A DNA stretch of 64,000 nt from Moritella sp. 24 (GTDB lineage Bacteria; Pseudomonadota; Gammaproteobacteria; Enterobacterales; Moritellaceae): contig NZ_CP056123.1 in NCBI RefSeq assembly GCF_018219155.1, positions 1,249,505 through 1,313,504 on the forward strand. Reading direction: 5' to 3'. Shown here one piece after another: positions 19,895 to 42,577 of this stretch (position 1 is the stretch's first letter; each line of letters starts with the position of its first letter). Below the pieces are notes generated by a model. The model saw only the letters and a program-made list of their open reading frames with translations. It was not told where the DNA came from and searched no databases. Made by a program: the position numbers and the translations under genes.

Positions 19895-20446
19895 ATGTTA
19901 AATAATCTTAAAATGGTCAGAATGAAAAATAAAGGTTTTACACTCATAGAATTAACGCTTTTGATTATCGTAATCGCTATCTTAGGTGCAACGGCAATTC
20001 CTCGATTTATCAATATTGAAAACGATGCAAAAAACGCATCATTAGTTGGCTTAAAAGGGGCAATCGAAAGTGCGATTAATATCTCTTATGGGAATATGGC
20101 AATTGCAGGAATAGAAGACCAAGCTGCGCTAAGTTATAAAGAGTCAGCTGCGTTCTACGAAGGATGCGTGTGGTGTTCTTTTGATTATGGCTATCCGGTT
20201 GCAGATACATTAACGCTAAAATATTTAGTCAATGGTATCGGAATTGTTGAAGATAATGACAGTTTCGCTTTAGTTGAATGGACAAAAATATGGGGTGGGG
20301 CAGTTGTGCTAGTCACGCCAACCAGCAATGCTAAAAGGTTGGCAAATAATTACCCAGTCTTGATCGACGATAAATGTTATGTGAAATATACGAGTTATGA
20401 TCAAGAACCTAAGAAACCATTAATTGAAATAGTGAAATGTGATTAA
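19895..20446 (+). CDS. Orphan type IV / MSHA-like prepilin
   Basis: A class III-signal prepilin of up to 183 residues. The cleavage site reads KNKG-FTLIE with the conserved Glu5, followed by a hydrophobic helix ending ILGATAIPRF. The stretch INIENDAKNASLVGLKGAIESA closely resembles MshA-type pilins. Four cysteines in the globular part (GCVWC, DDKC, VKC) could make two disulfides. The start is uncertain: Met10 (19922) gives the short 5-residue leader. No pilus assembly genes are nearby. A decayed duplicate of its promoter and 5' part sits at 24236-24470. Confidence 0.8.
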   Translation: MLNNLKMVRMKNKGFTLIELTLLIIVIAILGATAIPRFINIENDAKNASLVGLKGAIESAINISYGNMAIAGIEDQAALSYKESAAFYEGCVWCSFDYGYPVADTLTLKYLVNGIGIVEDNDSFALVEWTKIWGGAVVLVTPTSNAKRLANNYPVLIDDKCYVKYTSYDQEPKKPLIEIVKCD

Positions 20447-23004: not shown

Positions 23005-23607
23005 TTATACCGTTTGACGTTTTCTACGTTGAATACCCAGTAGTACTAGTCCTAAACCGAGCAGTCCAAACATACTAGGTTCTGGGACAGGATTAACGAC
23101 TGTACCAGCCAGTGTTAATGTACTCGATAAACTGTCATTCCACGGTCTCCAATCAAAAGTAGGGTTAGCTTGTGGTACGTAGGTAAACTGATAATCACCC
23201 GCGGTTAGCCCATTAAAAGTAACCCCTTGCCACGCTGTAACTGGTCCACATCCGGGACATATTGCAAGGTATGCTGTATCGTCATTCGACAGAGGATTCC
23301 CTGCTTGGTTAGCGTTACCTGTAACAAAGAAATTTGTGATACCGTCAATTAATCCTGCTGGTTTCACTAGAGTATTCATATTGAATGGTAAGGTCGTTGC
23401 TGCAAATAGAGTCCCATTGATACCTTCAAGCGTCATACTACCTTCTAAAGGTACGTTACCTGGTGAGCCGTGAGAATAGTTACCGCCCCAAAAATTTACA
23501 GAGCCTGGGCCTGAGTTTTCAAAGCCGATCGAAACCATATGTGCGCTTGCTGTTGTTGCGAGCAATAGGCTCATTGCTCCTGTGGTCAATAAAGTTATTT
23601 TTTTCAT
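23005..23607 (-). CDS. PEP-CTERM sorting-domain protein
   Basis: A 200-residue exported protein. The signal peptide is at 1-22 (cleaved near TASA-HM). The middle region is Gly/Asn/Pro-rich, with a CPGC pair. The C-terminal sorting tail has VPEPS, a hydrophobic helix (MFGLLGLGLVLLGI) and the basic end QRRKRQTV. Such tails are recognised by exosortase, which anchors or releases the protein at the envelope, often in exopolysaccharide-producing bacteria. No exosortase is in the window. The function of the ectodomain is unknown. Confidence 0.88.
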   Translation of the reverse strand: MKKITLLTTGAMSLLLATTASAHMVSIGFENSGPGSVNFWGGNYSHGSPGNVPLEGSMTLEGINGTLFAATTLPFNMNTLVKPAGLIDGITNFFVTGNANQAGNPLSNDDTAYLAICPGCGPVTAWQGVTFNGLTAGDYQFTYVPQANPTFDWRPWNDSLSSTLTLAGTVVNPVPEPSMFGLLGLGLVLLGIQRRKRQTV

Positions 23608-24235
23608 TTTTAACTGTCCTTCTCAAACTATATTAAGAAAATGTGTCGAGTTGTGACACCAGCAGTAAATAAAGCAGTATCGATATCTAATCCTACAGTT
23701 ACAACAAGAGCAAAAATGATGCCGAATTTTATATAACGCTGCTCTGTAGCATTTAGAATAACCAGTTAATTATGAAAATATAGCTGTGATGTAAACTTAG
23801 TTATTAATAATCAATTAATTATATATTTTTGTATAAGTAGTAAAGCAATTATTTTATAACTTTATTTTATTGTTCAGGTTTAGCTAGGATAATTTTATCT
23901 TTATCTTTATCTTTATCTTTATCTTTATCTTTATCTTTATCTTGAGCGAGCAGGGAAGTATTAAGTGTCAATATTTTCGACGGTGAAAATGCTATTTTTA
24001 CAGGTGAAACGATATTATTTATATCGAGGCTATTTAAATTGGTAGGTTAAGATATTGATTTATAATACTGTAGGTGTCGCGGGGCTACGCGTATTGTTTA
24101 AATATAATATAGTAAAATGTTTCGACCCATTTAGAATATCCATGATAAAACCAGTGATAAAACCAGTGATAGAACACAAATGCTGAGATGATATTATTTG
24201 TTTACCTGACACTCCAATGTTTCCCGTTTTTCTTT
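23608..24235. other. Gene-poor stretch with hexanucleotide repeat
   Basis: Nothing coding is convincing in these 628 bases. They hold the promoter side of the PEP-CTERM gene and the TTTATC array at 23894-23941. On the minus strand a short open frame runs TLNTSLLAQ then eight Asp-Lys pairs to a stop, with no clear start, which may be the remnant of a secreted protein. Confidence 0.5.
23894..23941. repeat. Eight perfect copies of TTTATC
   Basis: A hexanucleotide microsatellite of exactly eight uninterrupted units. In the minus-strand frame it would encode (Asp-Lys)8. It lies about 290 bp upstream of the PEP-CTERM start. Copy number is expected to vary by slippage, but as a 6-mer it would not shift a reading frame. 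Confidence 0.95.
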
Positions 24236-24470
24236 CCATTTAAGCCGTTTACACGAAAATAAAGTTGACGAAACATTCTGATTTATTATGGAATGGTTAA
24301 GCTAGAGTTCACTTACTGATGAAATAATATAAGAATGGTCAGAATGAAAAAGAAAAGTTTTATACTCATAGAATTTACGATCTAGATTATCGTTATTGGT
24401 ATCTTGTCTGCAACCGAAAGTGCGATTACTATCTCGTATGGGAATATGTCCATAGAAAGAATAGAAGACT
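24236..24470 (+). pseudogene. Decayed duplicate of the MSHA-like pilin gene
   Basis: The promoter segment TTTAAGCCGTTTACAC recurs from 19826, and the 5' coding part ATGGTCAGAATGAAAAA recurs at 24334. The frame has a stop early (ACG ATC TAG). An internal deletion joins the end of the hydrophobic helix to GAAAGTGCGATTA..ATCTC, and it then stops at GAAGACTAA. It is a clear non-functional copy of the gene at 19895. Confidence 0.85.
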
Positions 24471-24473
24471 AAC

Positions 24474-24598
24474 AGTGAGAGCTTTAGTTCATTTTTAGCG
24501 CCACCGAGTAGGCCTGACAGTTTTAGCACGCCAAAAGAGCGGCAAAAGTATTTGAAAGAGTTAAACGAACATTATGCAATCGTAGGTCGGCCACGATG
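24474..24598 (+). pseudogene. Fragment duplicating the neuropeptide-Y-like 3' end of the 31.8-kb gene
   Basis: From GAGAGCTTT to CGATGA this is a diverged copy of 32331-32455. The frame is open and ends in the same motif (LKELNEHYAIVGRPR-stop). Over the 33 tail codons I count six synonymous and five amino-acid changes (for example Y to H, E to K, L to R). It has no start codon or promoter of its own and follows the pilin remnant directly. Similarity continues some 25 bases past the stop. Confidence 0.8.
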
Positions 24599-24613
24599 AA
24601 ATATTTAAACAAG

Positions 24614-24660
24614 ACGAGCATGATAATGAGATAACTTCTTTATATCATGCTCGTTTTTGT
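24614..24660. terminator. Bidirectional terminator
   Basis: ACGAGCATGATA (24614-24625) pairs with TATCATGCTCGT (24643-24654), then T5. It lies at the 3' end of the broken chemoreceptor gene on the minus strand. Confidence 0.75.
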
Positions 24661-25190
24661 TAGCTTAATTTAAAGCGAGCAACCAATGCGGCCAGTGTGT
24701 CGTTTTCTCCGGTTAGGTTTTTTACGCTTATCTTTGTTTCTTGACCGTTTTTGCTTAACTCCTGCACCATTTCTTGAATGGTATGCATATTTCGGTTTAT
24801 TTCTTCTGTCACCGAACTTTGTTCTTCTGACGCGGTTGCGATTTGAGCGCTTAAATCGTTAATTTCAACGATAGACCCCGTCATACTGTCTAGGCTATTT
24901 GTGACTAATGATGTGTTTTCCGACACTTTTTGACAGCTCTCTGTCGTATTGTGCATTGCTGAAACGGCTGAGTCAGCTCGAACAGTGAGGCTTTGCAACA
25001 TATCATTAATTTTGGCTGTACTGTCTTGGGTTAAAGCAGCTAAAGAACGCACTTCATCAGCCACAACTGCAAAACCACGCCCTTGTTCACCCGCTCTCGC
25101 AGCTTCAATCGCGGCGTTCAGTGCTAACAAGTTTGTTTGGTCTGCAATACCACCAATCACTTCTAATACCGTGGCTATATTCTTAGCTGT

Positions 25191-26511
25191 TGACGCCGTA
25201 AACCCTGATATGGCGGGGATACAAGGCGAAAGTGTATAGCACTTTGATCTTTGTTATTCTGTGTTATAATGCTGTACATATATACAGAGGTTTATTATGT
25301 TAAGAGCCACCAAAGTACGCATTTACCCTACAGCCGACCAAACTGAGTTTTTAATAGCTCAGTTTGGCGCTGTGCGCTTTGCGTATAATAAAGCTCTACA
25401 TTTAAAGTCTCATATGTACCGCAAGCATGGTGTGACACTGAACCCTAGAAAGGACATCAAGCCACTGCTTGCTGTCGCTAAGAAATCCCGAAAATATCAC
25501 TGGTTAAAGCAGTACGATTCAATCGCATTGCAGCAATCCGTTATCAACTTGCACACTGCTTTTGACAACTTCTTCAATCCAAAGTTGAAAGCCAAATACC
25601 CAACCTTTAAACGCAGACATGGAAAGCAATCTAGCTATCACTGCGTCGGTGTTAAAGTGCTTGATAGTGCTATTAAACTGCCAAAGATGAAGCCAATCGA
25701 GGCTAATATCCATCGTGAAATCATTGGCAAGGTTAAAAGCATTACGCTCAGTTTGAGTAAAACGGGCAAGTTCTATGCGTCCATTCTTGTGGATGATGGT
25801 ATTGAAGTACCTAATCTGCTCCACTCTGTTAATAAAGTTACTGGTATTGATTTGGGGTTATCACACTTTGCCATTCAGTCGAATGGCAAGAAAGAGGCTA
25901 ACCCGCGATTTGTAAAGCGTGCTGAGAAAAACCTCAGGCGTAAACAGAAGCAGCTTTCGCGTAAGGTAAAAGGCAGTGCAAACCGAGCTAAAGCTCGTTT
26001 GCTTGTCGTTAAGTGTCATGAAAAGACAGCGAATTCTCGTGCTGATTTTCAACATAAACTATCTCGAACACTCGTAGACAAAAACCACGCTGTGATTATA
26101 GAGACATTGAAATCAGCCAATATGATGAAAAACCGCAAACTGGCTAAACACATAGCGGATGCCTCATGGCATAGCTTTGTCGTTAAGTTGGAGTATAAGT
26201 TGAAAGAGAAAGGTAAACACCTTGTTAAGCTCGATCAATGGTATGCCAGCTCTAAGACGTGCAACTGTTGCGGTTACAAAATGAAAGAAATGGATTTATC
26301 GGTTCGGAAGTGGGATTGCCCCTCTTGTGGCACTACGGATATAGATCGGGATCTAAATGCCGCTCTTAATATCCGTGACAAAGGTATTCTAGAATTAAAA
26401 GCGGCTGGACAGTCGTTTCTGCTTATGGAAGCTGCGTAAGACTCGATACTATCGAGCATTAGCTAACGAAATAAGAAGCATCGCCCGATAGGGCGGTGAG
26501 TAGTCACTGCC
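25191..26511 (+). mobile_element. TnpB-only IS200/IS605-type element
   Basis: About 1.32 kb inserted in the chemoreceptor pseudogene, carrying one gene (tnpB) and no tnpA. Subterminal hairpins are present as expected for this family: AAAGTG-TATAG-CACTTT near the left end (25229-25245) and CGCCC-GATA-GGGCG near the right end (26482-26495). Left flank TTGAC at 25190-25194 resembles target pentamers of the family. Ends are inferred from the interruption of MCP coding and are good to roughly 10-20 bases. There is no obvious target duplication, as expected for IS605 mechanisms. Confidence 0.8.
25297..26439 (+). CDS. tnpB: TnpB RNA-guided nuclease of IS605-type element
   Basis: A 380-residue full-length TnpB. 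The N-terminal HTH-like region starts RATKVRIYPTADQ. The RuvC catalytic residues are all visible: D185 (GIDLGLSHFA), E269 (IIETLKSANM) and D352 (DRDLNAALNI). A zinc finger with C322/C325 and C341/C344 is intact. TnpB proteins are omega-RNA-guided DNA nucleases that cut empty donor sites. AGAGG lies 7 bases before the ATG. There is no tnpA, so movement would need a transposase in trans. Confidence 0.95.
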   Translation: MLRATKVRIYPTADQTEFLIAQFGAVRFAYNKALHLKSHMYRKHGVTLNPRKDIKPLLAVAKKSRKYHWLKQYDSIALQQSVINLHTAFDNFFNPKLKAKYPTFKRRHGKQSSYHCVGVKVLDSAIKLPKMKPIEANIHREIIGKVKSITLSLSKTGKFYASILVDDGIEVPNLLHSVNKVTGIDLGLSHFAIQSNGKKEANPRFVKRAEKNLRRKQKQLSRKVKGSANRAKARLLVVKCHEKTANSRADFQHKLSRTLVDKNHAVIIETLKSANMMKNRKLAKHIADASWHSFVVKLEYKLKEKGKHLVKLDQWYASSKTCNCCGYKMKEMDLSVRKWDCPSCGTTDIDRDLNAALNIRDKGILELKAAGQSFLLMEAA

Positions 26512-26530
26512 TTCATTCATTGCTTGTATG
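26380..26530 (+). ncRNA. Probable omega-RNA (reRNA) at the right end of the IS
   Basis: In IS605-type elements the guide RNA spans the tnpB 3' end and right end, and its guide is the flanking sequence. Here a GC hairpin (26482-26495) lies just before the inferred right end at about 26511, so the guide would start near TTCATTCATTGCTTG in the old chemoreceptor gene. Position is inferred from family architecture; no transcript evidence. The end coordinates are approximate. Confidence 0.35.
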
Positions 26531-26937
26531 CTTTTCGCTGTATCATTCATTTCAGACACTAATGACATGACACTATTTGATGCTTCGGTAACCGTCACTT
26601 TTGATGCTTGTGCGTCATCGTTTGCGACTTGGGTACTTGTTGCTGTTTGGAGTGCATTTTGAGCCTTACTGTTTGCTGAATTGATATTGAATATCGTGTT
26701 GAGTGTTTTTCAACCACGACACCGTTACAACTTAGTCGTCGTTAACCATACCCTTTTAGTTATAAGTAACTATTCTATATCGTATTATGCTGTTTTCTAT
26801 TAATTGCATATTTCATTGAATAATTCCTGAATTTAACTTTGTTGCACCTATAAATAGGTATAAGGTGGGGTTGTTAATAGTGAGGTAATATTCCTTGCTA
26901 CCCCCACATAAATGCTACGCAAAATAAGAGAAAACAG

Positions 26938-30095: not shown

Positions 30096-30417
30096 ATTGC
30101 TCTCCAAGTATGGACTTGATTGTGTAGGCTGTGCCTTATCTGTGAGGCACTATCTATTTATCAATACAAACATCTGGATAAAGTTTGTGGATTGTCACGT
30201 TCAACGCGCTGTTTAATATTGTTACTGTGTTGAGTGTAACTAACTGTTATAGATGTGTATTTGAGCGAAGTATACCACCCGTCATGTTTGATATTGATAC
30301 GGGGGTATCAAATTTTAGTTCTATTTTAGCTTGTTCAAGATCCTATGATCTATGTCATTATTTCTAGGATAATTACTCTCATTTTTTCTGGTTGGTACTT
30401 TTCGTCGCTTTTTGTCG

Positions 30418-30515
30418 TGAGCTGTATTCATTAATTGGCTGTGATAAGCGGAGGGATATTTGAGACGCTATAGGGTATGGAAAAAGCGTTAAACGATATA
30501 GTGGTAATGAGTTCG
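30418..30515 (+). pseudogene. Decayed duplicate of yaeP
   Basis: CTGTATTCATTAATTGGC is shared exactly with yaeP (34746 region). After a diverged middle, AAAGCGTTAAAYGATAT followed by TGGTRATGA matches its later part in the right order and spacing. No open frame remains. The rest of 30108-30653 holds the hairpin at 30510 and the tandem repeats at 30559. Confidence 0.6.
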
Positions 30516-30558: not shown

Positions 30559-30660
30559 CATAAGTGACTTAACTTTCATACTATAAGTAATTCAACTCTG
30601 TATCATAAGCAGTTCAATTTTGTACCATAAGTAACTTAACGCTACATAATAAGTTATTGA
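30559..30660. repeat. Degenerate 22-bp tandem repeats
   Basis: Units beginning at 30559, 30581, 30604 and 30626, with a partial one at 30648, share the pattern MATAAGTRAYTYAAC followed by a variable 7 bases. The array ends at the stop codon of the carbonic-anhydrase-like gene (30654). Confidence 0.7.
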
Positions 30661-31493
30661 TTATTAGATAATAGAGCAGGGTTGATGACTAAGTTTCTGA
30701 CGCCGTGAGCATGATCTTCATCAAAATCATTATCCTTTAGCCACACATCAACACTGCTTATATCTACTTTCATGACTTGTGGGCGAACGCTCCAACTAAC
30801 CTGAAATGGCGATGATACTTCGTTATAACTTGGCCCTGTGGTTGATCCCGCATACTGTATCGGTGTACCTGTATTGTTTGGAATGTTAACCGCCTGATGA
30901 AACCCATTAATCATACCGAGTTTAGTTAGCTCGACAAAATTCATCGCCTTAGTGTCGTTCACTAATACGTAAACTTGGGTTTCTACTCTTAACTGAGGGT
31001 TGTTGTTTGCATCGCTAAGACACGCGCCTAAAGTGGCACCGGGTTCTACTTGAGCCGTTGAGTAGACGTAGTGCGCTTCAATCGTATCGCCCGAGGAAAG
31101 GCTATCGTGTTTGCTGGTACCGACTTTATGCTGAAAAGGTGATAATTCTTGTGGGGTTAATTTACCTGAGTATTCATAACCGCTTTGATATCCATGTCCG
31201 TCACCATTGCCTGCATACTGAGTGAATTCACCGCCTTTGTGTTCTGCATTCTTGTGGATATGAATATTACAGAGGTTCATTTTTGTAGACGCGGGAGCAA
31301 GGGAAAATAGTCGTTTGTTTGTACCTTGAAGTGTGTCGATATCTCGTGGTGATTGCGGGCCAAACCCTTTACCTTGGCTATTAGCGGCGAGTTCACTTCG
31401 TTGCTTTTCTATGACTTTATCTGTGACTGCTGCATTCGCTAAAGCTGGCAGAAATACTGCTGTTATACATAACGCTAAAATTTTGTTTCTCAT
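30654..31493 (-). CDS. Delta-class carbonic anhydrase-like exported protein
   Basis: A 279-residue protein with a signal peptide at 1-21 (cleaved at ANA-AV). The core NLCNIHIHKNAEHKGGEF (residues 73-90) supplies H78, H80 and H85, with E84 beside them. This resembles the zinc site of the delta/CA_like carbonic anhydrases first known from diatoms and also found in marine gammaproteobacteria. Cys75 probably pairs with the Cys in LGACLSD. It would hydrate CO2 in the periplasm. The family call is from motif memory. Confidence 0.72.
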   Translation of the reverse strand: MRNKILALCITAVFLPALANAAVTDKVIEKQRSELAANSQGKGFGPQSPRDIDTLQGTNKRLFSLAPASTKMNLCNIHIHKNAEHKGGEFTQYAGNGDGHGYQSGYEYSGKLTPQELSPFQHKVGTSKHDSLSSGDTIEAHYVYSTAQVEPGATLGACLSDANNNPQLRVETQVYVLVNDTKAMNFVELTKLGMINGFHQAVNIPNNTGTPIQYAGSTTGPSYNEVSSPFQVSWSVRPQVMKVDISSVDVWLKDNDFDEDHAHGVRNLVINPALLSNNQ

Positions 31494-31831
31494 ATAGTTC
31501 TCTTTTTATGGGCGTAGTTATAAGTGATATAAACGATATAAATTCAAAGAATTAGATACGATAACAGTATTGCAGCGTCACCTAAGGTCAGACCTGTTAG
31601 TGGTAATTCTGGCATGGATATTAATTATTATATCTAAGAGATTGGGGGAGAAATATCAGGCTAATCTAGATGGAAATAAACTGAACATACTTCATAAATA
31701 TTAAATTACTTATCGCGTATTAATCACAACATAAGAATGTTAGTAGGGACTTTGAATGTAGTTCATGAAGCAAAATAGCTATCGATGGTACTGTGGATTG
31801 ATAATTAATATGTGAATAAGGACAGTACACA

Positions 31832-32455
31832 ATGAAATTATATAACGCACTCTTACTTTCTTCTTTACCACTTTTCAGCGCGGGGAGTTTTGCTGCAAAT
31901 GATGCCAGTGCCGAGGTGAAAATAGGCATGTTTAAATGTGGTCCCAATAGTGAGATGCGTTGTCCGCATTTATGGTTTAAAGATCCTTCTGCAAGATTGA
32001 TACAAAGCGAGAGGGTTAGATGGACCTATGCGTACGATAACGATAGCGGTGATACGTCGGCTAAGGCTGTCGCTAAAGATATGGGGAAATCTTCTTTTGC
32101 TGAAAAAACGGCTTCTAAGGGACAGTTCGTACAAGGTAGTTTTTTTAAGGTAACGAAAGTGTGTGCGGATAAGTCTGGGTTTTGTTGGGTTCCAGGAAAT
32201 GAGGGGTATGCTGAAGATAGTACGCCGGATAGTAACTCATCGGGTTGGGTTACCTACGAGCTAGTATCACAAAACCATGGTACCGAGTCTCTGAATGATG
32301 ACCCTGTAAATGCTGCTTCAGAACCTAAGGTTGAGAGCTTTAATACATCTTTAGCACCACCGAGTCGGCCTGAAAGTTTTAGTACGCCTGAAGAATTGAA
32401 AAAGTATTTGAAAGAGTTAAATGAATATTATGCAATCGTAGGTCGGCCACGATGA
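31832..32455 (+). CDS. Secreted protein with C-terminal neuropeptide Y/F-like tail
   Basis: A 207-residue protein: signal peptide 1-21 (ending SFA), a globular region with four cysteines (C36, C44, C111, C118) that I do not recognise, a Ser/Asp/Asn-rich linker (about 128-172), then residues 174-207. This last part opens with LAPPSRP, turns through STPEEL and runs as an amphipathic helix to LNEYYAIVGRPR. It fits the pancreatic-hormone family pattern (Y192, L196, Y199, V203, R205, R207) except that the stop codon replaces the final Phe/Tyr. Against Lymnaea NPY recalled from memory, about 26 of 34 positions agree. AAGGAC precedes the ATG. Single gene, followed by a terminator. Confidence 0.85.
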   Translation: MKLYNALLLSSLPLFSAGSFAANDASAEVKIGMFKCGPNSEMRCPHLWFKDPSARLIQSERVRWTYAYDNDSGDTSAKAVAKDMGKSSFAEKTASKGQFVQGSFFKVTKVCADKSGFCWVPGNEGYAEDSTPDSNSSGWVTYELVSQNHGTESLNDDPVNAASEPKVESFNTSLAPPSRPESFSTPEELKKYLKELNEYYAIVGRPR

Positions 32456-32550
32456 AATATTTAAGCGTAGAGCATGACTTCGTTAATCATATTTAATGAA
32501 TAGGACGAGCAGTAAAGTAAGAGTTTAACGGGTGTAAAGCCCTGATTGGT

Positions 32551-32592
32551 ATAAAGCTACCTACATAACACTGTTATGCACGGTAGCTTTAT
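32551..32592. terminator. Bidirectional terminator
   Basis: ATAAAGCTACC (32551-32561) pairs with GGTAGCTTTAT (32582-32592), with an inner ATAAC/GTTAT stem. It separates the NPY-like gene from the convergent gene at 32631. Confidence 0.75.
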
Positions 32593-32614
32593 TCACGTTT
32601 AACTTGTGGTTAAA

Positions 32615-32646
32615 TTATTTTGTTATTTTGTTATTTTGTTATTTTG
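32615..32646. repeat. Four tandem copies of TTATTTTG
   Basis: Perfect 8-bp units at 32615, 32623, 32631 and 32639. The stop codon of the minus-strand gene (32631-32633) lies inside the array, so changes in copy number would sit at the gene's very end. Confidence 0.9.
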
Positions 32647-33254
32647 ATTAGTGTACTGCTATCGGCATGAGACATTGACTGACCGTAAATGTTTAACATC
32701 GTATTTTGTGAATAAGTTAGTTTATTTTCTTCAATTTTGATGTTCATGCTAAAGCCCGTTGTTGAGGCTTTTTCTGTCATATATGCGCCTTCAGCTATTC
32801 CTCGTGCAGGTGCAGTTAGTGTCATTGTTTTACCAGCTGGGCCTTCTGCGGTAACACAGGTAGTACGTGGTACACAAAATGAGTTATAGACCATTTGATT
32901 CTTAGCATCATAGATAAAATAACCACGTTGATCATGGAATTTAGAACCATCAGATTTTCTAAATACTTCTTGTTTGTAATATAAAGCCACTAAGTATTGA
33001 TCACTTGCATTCTCAGCATCTGCCGCAGCTTCAAACGTCATCGTTTCGAAAAAAGGACTTACTGCAAGAGAGCCTGCTCCTTGCTCAGAACCGATTTTCG
33101 CAGGTGCAACATCAACACCCGCTCCTTCCATTGTTTCCCAAGTGCCAACAAGTTGAGCAAGCGGACCAAAGTCCATTCCGTTAATTATATTTTCATTTGC
33201 CATTGCTGGAAAAGACATTGCTGTTGCTAGGCTAAGTACAAGTAGTTTGTTCAT
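32631..33254 (-). CDS. Exported beta-barrel (FABP/heme-binding-like) protein
   Basis: A 207-residue exported protein: signal peptide 1-19 (PAMA-NE), then a pattern that resembles lipocalin/FABP-type small barrels. LAQLVGTWET at about 33 is the GxW start typical of that fold, followed by SPFFETMTFEAAADAENASDQYLVALYYKQEVFR. A single Cys pair (FCVPRTTC) may form a disulfide. It probably binds a hydrophobic ligand or heme in the periplasm. GAGGAT precedes the ATG. Family assignment is tentative. Confidence 0.6.
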   Translation of the reverse strand: MNKLLVLSLATAMSFPAMANENIINGMDFGPLAQLVGTWETMEGAGVDVAPAKIGSEQGAGSLAVSPFFETMTFEAAADAENASDQYLVALYYKQEVFRKSDGSKFHDQRGYFIYDAKNQMVYNSFCVPRTTCVTAEGPAGKTMTLTAPARGIAEGAYMTEKASTTGFSMNIKIEENKLTYSQNTMLNIYGQSMSHADSSTLIKITK

Positions 33255-34711: not shown

Positions 34712-34915
34712 ATGAATGTTTATCAATGTTGTGACAAAGTCCGTGAACTGTATTCATTAATTGGCAGTGGTGATCAGGGGTATATTCCAGAAGCTATTAG
34801 CTGCGCGGTTAAAGCGTTAAATGATATCGCTGGTGATGAATCATTAGCTGAAGAAGTGCGCGCCAAAGCCGCCTTTGCCGCAGCAAACTTACTTATTTCA
34901 AACTTTGAAGATTAG
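34712..34915 (+). CDS. yaeP: YaeP/UPF0253 family protein
   Basis: A 67-residue protein closely matching E. coli Yae[28 protein letters not shown], then [13 protein letters not shown]. Its function is unknown in all species. AAGGTATTACC precedes the ATG. It stands alone here, whereas in E. coli it neighbours rof. A decayed copy is at 30418-30515. Confidence 0.9.
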
Positions 34916-36426: not shown

Positions 36427-37056
36427 TTATGCTTTGCGTCGGGACCATCCAAGTCCTAATAAGCCTAGACCGATAAAAGCCATAGCGGAGGGCTCTGGCA
36501 CCGTATAGTTGATGTCATCAATGATTTCGATTAGTCCTATGTTAGTACCTGTTCCACCAGTAAAGGGATTCCCCGAACCGTCGGTATAGGCGAAAAATGC
36601 TTGGTCAAAGTTAAGGCCGTTAAAACCGATAGTTTGATTCATGATGTCATCCCTGTTCAAAAGAACATCAGTGTGTCCCACCAAACTTCCATTCTTATAC
36701 AAATCCAGCCATGCTAAATCTCCAGGATTAGAATAATTTGGATCGTCATTACCGAAACTTAGAGATAAGTTCATGATATCAGAGGCAAAGTTGATAAAAA
36801 CACCACTTCCATCCCCATCAGAGAATACAGCTAGAGCATTACCATTCCCCTGAACACCAAAATTACCAATTTGCAATCCTGAACCGACATTGTCGGTAAA
36901 GGTTACTAGAGGATCGCCTACTGGCGAAAATCCATTAGCTTTGGCACCTGCTGTATCAGCTTCGAAATTGATCAATACAGCACTAGCCTGCACCGAACAA
37001 AAAGTGCAAGTCGTAAATAATAGGGCCTGTGCTATTTTATTTTTAATTAATGTCAT
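36427..37056 (-). CDS. PEP-CTERM sorting-domain protein
   Basis: A 209-residue exported protein: signal peptide 1-26, a beta-rich ectodomain of the kind often labelled PEP-CTERM secretion-signal proteins (INFEADTAGAKANGFSPVGD at the start), and the tail VPEPSAMAFIGLGLLGLGWSRRKA. Processing by exosortase is expected. It is not similar to the one at 23005 outside the tail. No exosortase or polysaccharide locus lies nearby. Confidence 0.88.
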   Translation of the reverse strand: MTLIKNKIAQALLFTTCTFCSVQASAVLINFEADTAGAKANGFSPVGDPLVTFTDNVGSGLQIGNFGVQGNGNALAVFSDGDGSGVFINFASDIMNLSLSFGNDDPNYSNPGDLAWLDLYKNGSLVGHTDVLLNRDDIMNQTIGFNGLNFDQAFFAYTDGSGNPFTGGTGTNIGLIEIIDDINYTVPEPSAMAFIGLGLLGLGWSRRKA

Positions 37057-41536: not shown

Positions 41537-42577
41537 TTATTCTTTACCGAATACGTTGTTTTCTTGCTCAAGTACGCGGATAAAGGTAGTACGCTTGCTT
41601 AGCTCTTTTAATGAAGCTGCGCCAACGTAAGTACAAGTAGAGCGAACGCCACCTAGGATATCAAAAACAGTGTTTTCGATTGGACCACGGTAAGGTACTT
41701 CTACAGTTTTACCTTCTGAAGCACGGTATTTAGCAACACCACCTGCGTGTTTGTTCATCGCAGTTGTTGAGCTCATGCCATAGAATTTTTTCGTTTTCTT
41801 GCCATTAACTTCGCACAGCTCGCCGCCACTTTCGTCGTGACCAGCTAACATGCCGCCCAACATAACGAAATCTGCGCCGCCGCCAAATGCTTTAGCAACA
41901 TCACCAGCACAAGAACAACCACCATCACCAACTACCATGCCACCAAGACCGTGTGCTGCGTCAGCACATTCGATGATTGCAGAAAGTTGTGGGTAACCAA
42001 CACCTGTTTTAACACGTGTCGTACATACTGAACCAGGACCGATACCAACTTTAATGATATCTGCGCCAGACAGGATAAGTTCTTCTGTGATTTCACCAGT
42101 AACTACGTTACCAGCCATAATCGTTTTAGAAGGGTATGCTGCACGTACTTTACGTACGAAATCAATGAAAAATTCTGAGTAACCATTAGCTACATCGATA
42201 CAGATAAACTGTAAACGCTCATCTAATGCTAGAACTTGTTGAAGTTTTTCGAAATCTGCGTCCGATGTACCAGTTGATACAAAAACGTGGTCGAAGATTT
42301 CTGGGTTTGCTTCTAGGAACTCTTTCCATTCAGCTACAGTGTAATGCTTATGTACAGCTGTTAGCATTTTGTGTGCAGCAAGTTCTTTCGCTGCTTCAAA
42401 TGTACCTACAGTATCCATGTTTGCAGCAATAACCGGTACACCTGTCCAAGTGTACTTGCTGTTAGGGAAAGTGAATGTACGCTCTAAGCTTACTTGTGAA
42501 CGACTCTTTAGAGTTGAACGTTTTGGGCGGAAAAGTACATCTTTAAAACCTAGCTTCAATTCTTGTTCTATACGCAT
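41537..42577 (-). CDS. guaC: GMP reductase
   Basis: A 346-residue IMPDH/GMPR-family enzyme reducing GMP to IMP with NADPH. It matches E. coli GuaC over its full length. The start [19 protein letters not shown], the catalytic loop [11 protein letters not shown] with the thioimidate Cys, and the C-terminal [22 protein letters not shown] are all present. No CBS domains, which excludes IMP dehydrogenase. Single gene with a long 5' region. Confidence 0.96.

What the first reader, a model, noticed from the sequence alone, without database searches (positions are those of the whole stretch)
31832..32455. Secreted bacterial protein ending in a molluscan-type neuropeptide Y/F sequence
Seen: the last 34 residues (LAPPSRP...ending LNEYYAIVGRPR) have the polyproline stretch, turn and amphipathic helix of the NPY family and fit its C-terminal pattern (Y-x3-L-x2-Y-x3-V-x-R-x-R). 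Known: mollusc NPY/NPF peptides such as those of Lymnaea and Aplysia end NEYYAIVGRPRF-amide or very close; recalled from memory, about 26 of 34 positions agree with Lymnaea. The bacterial frame stops exactly where the receptor-critical Phe would be. There is a signal peptide and a Cys-containing carrier domain. Inference: host-peptide mimicry (agonist or, lacking RF-amide, antagonist) or capture of animal sequence. I know of no described bacterial NPY system.
Basis: partly seen in the sequence, partly recalled or inferred. Interest (0 to 1): 0.95.

Follow-up and report, generated by a model that had tools for sequence, protein, structure and literature searches.

The report
Bacterial secreted protein with neuropeptide-F tail
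A marine bacterium carries a gene for a probably exported protein whose last 34 amino acids closely match a snail-type nerve hormone (neuropeptide F), most likely captured from an animal, which would be a very unusual animal-to-bacterium gene transfer and possibly a case of hormone mimicry.

Summary
The 207-aa ORF at 31832-32455 (+) ends in a tail, L174-R207, that matches Pfam Hormone_3 (NPY/NPF family) at E 4e-14, 52.8 bits against a cut-off of 28.7. It equals Lymnaea NPF at 26 of 34 positions and is nearly as close to nine mollusc NPFs as they are to one another. The ORF stops after the Arg codon that a conserved intron interrupts in animal NPY/NPF genes (PMC8536682, PMC7314547, passages), so loss of the final Phe fits capture of animal genomic DNA. 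A sister genome lacks the gene; there, native DNA resumes within a few bases of the stop, so this fit may be coincidence. A second, startless, diverged tail copy lies at 24465-24599. No relative of tail or carrier was confirmed in what was searched. Homology to NPF and animal origin are well supported; function is not. Without Phe-amide an agonist is unlikely; I favour an antagonist or decoy on an exported carrier only slightly over a captured fragment without signalling role. The organism is probably a Moritella (one plasmid match). Nothing was tested at the bench.

The parts
31832..32455 (+). Intact gene: probably exported carrier with C-terminal NPF-like tail (207 aa)
31832..31894 (+). Putative Sec signal peptide, aa 1-21 (SFA|AN)
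   Evidence: inspection only; no predictor was run
31895..32281 (+). Carrier region aa 22-150 with four Cys (36, 44, 111, 118); no known family found
   Evidence: whole protein; aa 22-165
32282..32350 (+). Linker aa 151-173, rich in Asp/Glu/Ser/Asn
   Evidence: inspection
32351..32452 (+). NPF-like tail L174-R207, Hormone_3
32450..32455 (+). CGA TGA: last Arg codon, the one split by the conserved NPY/NPF intron in animals, then stop
   Evidence: PMC8536682 (passages), PMC7314547 (passages)
31663..32455 (+). Segment absent from same-genus genome G007 (approximate limits): upstream region plus the whole gene
   Evidence: using L062
24465..24599 (+). Second, truncated copy of the tail: 44-codon open frame with no start codon before the tail
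24234..24472 (+). Decayed copy of parts of the prepilin-like gene 19895-20446 and its upstream DNA, abutting the second tail copy
   Evidence: D2, D3, D6
24600..24659 (.). Native DNA with an inverted repeat (by inspection) at the end of the chemoreceptor gene, shared with G007; right flank of the inferred original site

Best explanation
The tail is a true homologue of protostome (mollusc-like) neuropeptide F, acquired from animal DNA and joined in frame to an exported bacterial protein. The protein leaves the cytoplasm by its signal peptide and displays the tail at the end of a flexible linker. Most likely the tail binds an NPF receptor of an animal associate without the Phe-amide needed to activate it, acting as antagonist or decoy. 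Shown by sequence: the homology, the in-frame fusion, the second copy and the absence from the sister locus. Inferred: animal donor, export, retention by selection, release from the cell, receptor binding. My separate estimates: homology 0.95, animal origin 0.9, tail kept by selection 0.55, receptor-directed role 0.35.
For: Hormone_3 4e-14 over 33 residues. Identity to 9 mollusc NPFs is 21-26 of 34, against 21-32 (mean 24.4) among the molluscs; shrimp NPF1 20, human NPY 8. The ORF ends at the Arg codon interrupted by the family's conserved intron (PMC8536682; PMC7314547; passages); a usual donor (GTRAGT) read through gives CGG-TRA, Arg-stop (my inference). Only this genome is over the cut-off in 394, 258 and 398 genomes. 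A sister locus lacks the gene. Of 5 amino-acid differences between the tail copies, 4 can be polarised by molluscs, and all 4 are changes in the startless copy (1/16 under equal rates); dN 0.096, dS 0.309, dN>=dS in 3.1% of 1000 bootstraps. The helix part is more amphipathic than all but 2.1% of 5000 shuffles. Precedent for a microbe-encoded hormone acting as antagonist: LCDV1 viral insulin-like peptide (PMC9637144, start of abstract).
Against: No Phe and no Gly for amidation. NPF-N18, -C21, -C9 and two chimeras did not activate the abalone receptor (PMC8536682). Nothing shows expression, export, processing or contact with an animal; a consensus scan finds no promoter-like site on the + strand of 31400-32700. 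The G007 comparison puts native DNA within a few bases of the stop, so the intron-boundary match may be coincidence, and I recognise no intron sequence. The selection signal rests on 14 differing codons of 41. One genome is known to carry it.
Confidence: 0.35

Rival explanations
1. Captured animal DNA without a signalling role: a piece of an NPF exon came to form the 3' end of an orphan exported protein and persists because it does no harm or too little time has passed.
For: Found in one genome only; the tail was duplicated and decays like other DNA in this rearranged region; receptor-critical end missing; the stop lies at a junction with native DNA.
Against: The intact copy keeps 14 of 15 mollusc-invariant residues, the startless copy 12; dS between the copies is 0.31 (bootstrap 0.09-0.70), against 0.65 and 0.44 for two neighbouring genes compared with G007, so it is not brand new.
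Confidence: 0.33
2. Animal-derived but exapted for a bacterial task: the Pro stretch plus amphipathic helix serves as a structural cap or a membrane- or partner-binding tail of the carrier.
For: Amphipathic helix; position at the C-terminus of a probably exported, Cys-containing protein.
Against: The kept residues include the C-terminal R-P-R and other positions invariant in the hormone; no bacterial partner was identified.
Confidence: 0.2
3. Convergence: a bacterial helical tail or J-domain-like piece that happens to resemble NPF.
For: The A1 profile weakly touches a DnaJ N-terminus (E 0.064, no stretch passing on its own).
Against: 4e-14 across 33 residues, Pro motif and helix included; nothing else over the cut-off in 394, 258 and 398 genomes.
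Confidence: 0.04
4. Assembly or contamination artefact.
For: Only one genome carries it.
Against: Two diverged copies 7.9 kb apart in a 4.64-Mb contig; one is in frame behind a putative signal peptide and AGGA element; each has one flank that aligns to G007.
Confidence: 0.02

Closest known systems
Mollusc neuropeptide F (Lymnaea, Lottia, Haliotis NPF)
   Same: 26, 25 and 24 of 34 residues identical; Pro stretch, helix region and RPR end.
   Different: The animal form follows a signal peptide directly and is followed by a GKR amidation and cleavage signal after Phe (PMC4208409 passages); here the tail ends a 207-aa protein, with no Phe, Gly or dibasic site after it.
Cone-snail venom NPF (Conus betulinus)
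   Same: A neuropeptide F found outside ordinary neural use (PMC4208409 passage).
   Different: An animal gene in an animal; not bacterial.
Viral insulin-like peptides of Iridoviridae
   Same: Animal-type hormone encoded by a microbe; the LCDV1 form antagonises IGF-1 signalling (PMC9637144, start of abstract).
   Different: Viral; tested experimentally; different hormone.
RaxX of Xanthomonas (PSY mimic)
   Same: Bacterial peptide resembling a host hormone (PMC6637879, start of abstract).
   Different: Plant hormone, sulfated, encoded with its own raxSTAB genes; I noticed no such genes among the neighbours but did not search for them.

Membership tests
NPY/NPF (Pfam Hormone_3) | Score above the curated cut-off over the mature peptide | tested here: met
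   52.8 against 28.7 bits, profile 2-34 of 36
NPY/NPF (Pfam Hormone_3) | N-terminal Pro pattern and C-terminal R-x-R | tested here: met
   PPxRP and RPR kept
NPY/NPF (Pfam Hormone_3) | C-terminal Phe/Tyr with Gly for amidation, then dibasic cleavage site | tested here: not met
   stop TGA directly after Arg in both copies
NPY/NPF (Pfam Hormone_3) | Intron between bases 2 and 3 of the last Arg codon | tested here: inconclusive
   bacterial ORF ends at that codon, but no intron sequence is recognised
NPY/NPF (Pfam Hormone_3) | PP-fold | not testable with these tools
NPY/NPF (Pfam Hormone_3) | Acts on an NPY/NPF receptor | not testable with these tools
   needs a receptor assay
Bacterial J-domain (DnaJ) | Pfam match to a J-domain | tested here: not met
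   Hormone_3 is the only Pfam family at E<=1
Bacterial hormone mimic (RaxX-like) | Shown secretion and host receptor activity | not testable with these tools
   bench work needed

The most novel reading that the evidence does not exclude
A bacterium captured a neuropeptide F exon from a marine mollusc-like animal and uses it, on an exported carrier, to bind and block the NPF receptors that control feeding, growth and reproduction in its animal associate: a bacterially encoded animal neuropeptide acting across kingdoms.
Probability: 0.27. Interest if true: 0.97.

Novelty: new variant of a known kind. Interest (0 to 1): 0.88.

Why it matters
A bilaterian neuropeptide inside a bacterial gene would be a rare, well-delimited animal-to-bacterium transfer, with an intron-position clue to how it happened and a gene-free sister locus in which to study it. 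If the tail acts on NPF receptors, it would make bacterial control of animal feeding and reproduction directly testable: NPF injection suppressed reproduction and reduced growth in Lymnaea and had satiation-like effects in Aplysia (PMC4208409 passages). None of the papers listed in my searches (open-licence papers only, showing 15 of 10,826 and showing 8 of 18) is on a bacterial NPY/NPF by title or the abstract start shown.

Tried and rejected
Chance or bacterial motif: rejected by profile score and genome controls. DnaJ-like start: rejected, a chain touches only profile positions 26-38. Contamination: rejected. Phage or plasmid cargo: P0001 has no match in phages, two matches at E 5 and 9 in plasmids, none confirmed in viral contigs (5 stretches; with A1 47 stretches). 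Genome contigs: with A1 one pattern, 65 stretches, none confirmed; with P0001 six patterns, 53 stretches, none confirmed. These pattern scans miss distant relatives, and the window's own or very near genomes may be left out. Carrier aa 22-165: 13 of 369 class genomes at E<=0.1; the 12 besides G000 have E 0.003-0.1, 5 of them with stops inside, read as chance. In some searches only part of the first-look candidates was scored where there were many. Intron read-through as proof of genomic capture: weakened. Promoter scan 31400-32700: one site, on the - strand, and no terminator. DNA comparison with mollusc genes: no such collection on hand. Codon usage: tail and carrier both near the 8th-9th percentile of host segments, uninformative. 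First 20 kb of contig C2: no plasmid match. The single paper listed (PMC4054857) was opened at the term: it speaks of anti-bacterial neuropeptide-like proteins of nematodes.

Full report
OBSERVATION. The ORF 31832-32455 (+) encodes 207 aa. An AAGGA element lies upstream of the ATG (sequence, by inspection), the first 21 residues look like a Sec signal peptide (inspection), and the carrier has Cys at 36, 44, 111 and 118. Pfam finds one family in the whole protein at E<=1: Hormone_3, E 4e-14, 52.8 bits, cut-off 28.7, aa 175-207 to profile positions 2-34 of 36; the 34-aa tail alone gives 8.2e-16. NCBIfam (E<=1) and PHROGs (E<=10) give nothing. Among solved structures the best sequence match is 1k8v, neuropeptide F, E 0.013, aa 187-207; a profile of both tail copies with seven mollusc NPFs reaches 1k8v at 3.5e-8 and peptide YY at 0.017.

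CLOSENESS. Sequences were taken from PMC4208409 Table 5 (passage), PMC8536682 Table 1, PMC12466947 (passage), PMC5996578 (passage) and PMC7212414 (passage). Identity over 34 positions: Lymnaea 26, Lottia 25, Idiosepius 24, Haliotis 24, Helix 23, Crassostrea 23, Patinopecten 23, Pomacea 22, Aplysia 21 (mean 23.4), shrimp NPF1 20, human NPY 8. The nine molluscs among themselves: 21-32, mean 24.4. The bacterial tail keeps 14 of their 15 invariant positions (Arg17 is Lys) and at 32 of 34 positions has a residue seen in some mollusc. PMC6188537 (passage) reports the YYAIVGRPRF end in a nemertodermatid too, so molluscs are the best match in my panel, not a proven donor; annelids and brachiopods were not compared.

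WHERE THE TAIL STOPS. In NPY/NPF genes an intron lies between bases 2 and 3 of the last Arg codon, stated as strictly conserved between abalone and other vertebrate and invertebrate genes (PMC8536682, passage) and reported across several phyla (PMC7314547, passage); ten planarian npy genes share that architecture (PMC2953531, passages). The bacterial frame is CGG CCA CGA TGA, so it ends at exactly that codon. Reading a usual splice donor through would give Arg then stop, so loss of Phe is what capture of genomic DNA predicts (my inference). Against this, native DNA resumes very near the stop (below), so the match of positions may be chance.

SECOND COPY. A 44-codon open frame at 24465-24599 holds a second tail, with an in-frame stop directly upstream and no start codon before the tail; the only ATG/GTG/TTG codon is a TTG inside it. 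The copies share 87.5% of bases over 40 codons. Copy 2 abuts a decayed copy of parts of the prepilin-like gene 19895-20446. Fourteen of 41 codon pairs differ (stop included), 8 changing the residue; dN 0.096, dS 0.309. Five of the residue changes fall in the 34-aa tail. At four the molluscs allow polarising, and each time copy 2 has a residue seen in no mollusc; at the fifth neither copy matches. This hints at constraint on the intact copy but is small (1/16 under equal rates).

SITE. In same-genus genome G007 the delta carbonic anhydrase gene and the chemoreceptor gene are neighbours with 270 bases between. G007 aligns to the window up to 31662 on the carbonic-anhydrase side, has 43 unaligned bases, then aligns from window 24592 on through the chemoreceptor's end. 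So a segment of about 790 bases (31663-32455) is present here and not there, with the whole gene in it. It may be gain here or loss in G007. The right limit is blurred: CACGATGAAATA at the ORF's end agrees with G007 at 9 of 12. Copy 2 keeps the chemoreceptor flank and copy 1 the carbonic-anhydrase flank, which fits one original insertion and later rearrangement (inference). In G006 and G010 other genes lie beside the carbonic anhydrase gene; G002 has no match to that gene. dS between this genome and G007 is 0.65 and 0.44 for two neighbouring genes, against 0.31 (bootstrap 0.09-0.70) between the tail copies.

DISTRIBUTION. P0001 matches 1 of 99 relatives and 1 of 394 order genomes, each time only G000. 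Hormone_3 exceeds its cut-off in 1 of 11, 1 of 394, 1 of 258 and 1 of 398 genomes, the same one; samples overlap; 0 of 14 controls. At the looser E<=10 all 11 genus genomes and 13 of 14 controls give sub-threshold matches, at most 17.3 bits outside this genome among the 11. The carrier alone has no convincing relative in 369 class genomes. No match in phages and no confirmed relative in viral contigs or genome contigs; plasmids gave two hits at E 5 and 9.

ORGANISM. No tool named it. Contig C3 (19,480 bases) matches a Moritella marina plasmid over 46% at 90% identity, with much shorter matches to Moritella viscosa and Shewanella plasmids; the first 20 kb of C2 match none. Moritella is likely. 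Gene names not given by a call (chemoreceptor, guaC, prepilin) are my readings of the translations.

MECHANISM. Exported carrier, linker, NPF-like C-terminus. Receptor agonism is unlikely: Phe-amide is missing (that NPY free acid is inactive is recalled), and shortened or chimeric NPFs failed on the abalone receptor. A non-activating ligand is my leading functional idea, at modest probability; a captured fragment without signalling role is nearly as likely.

LITERATURE. Of the papers listed (15 of 10,826; 1; 1; 0; 8 of 18, where the term was read as 'hormone3'), none is on a bacterial NPY/NPF by title and abstract start; only open-licence papers are covered, so this is weak evidence of absence. 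Papers were seen as listings, abstract starts or passages, plus one full section of PMC8536682.

Noticed in passing
24660-26598: Remnants of a chemoreceptor (MCP) gene on the - strand flank an IS605-type TnpB ORF (25297-26439); G007 has an uninterrupted 706-aa version.
   Followed up: partly
30416-30471: Fragment 80% identical to part of the UPF0253 gene at 34712-34915, perhaps a decayed duplicate.
   Followed up: no
30654-31493: Delta carbonic anhydrase family gene (CA_like, 2.4e-79), matched in 5 of 11 genus genomes at E<=1e-5, this one included.
   Followed up: partly
23005-23607 and 36427-37056: Two proteins with a PEP-CTERM motif.
   Followed up: no
19814-41500: The region before the guaC-like gene 41537-42577 differs in gene content between the same-genus loci looked at (G007, G002, G006, G010).
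   Followed up: partly
23894-23941: Simple TTTATC tandem array (D5).
   Followed up: no
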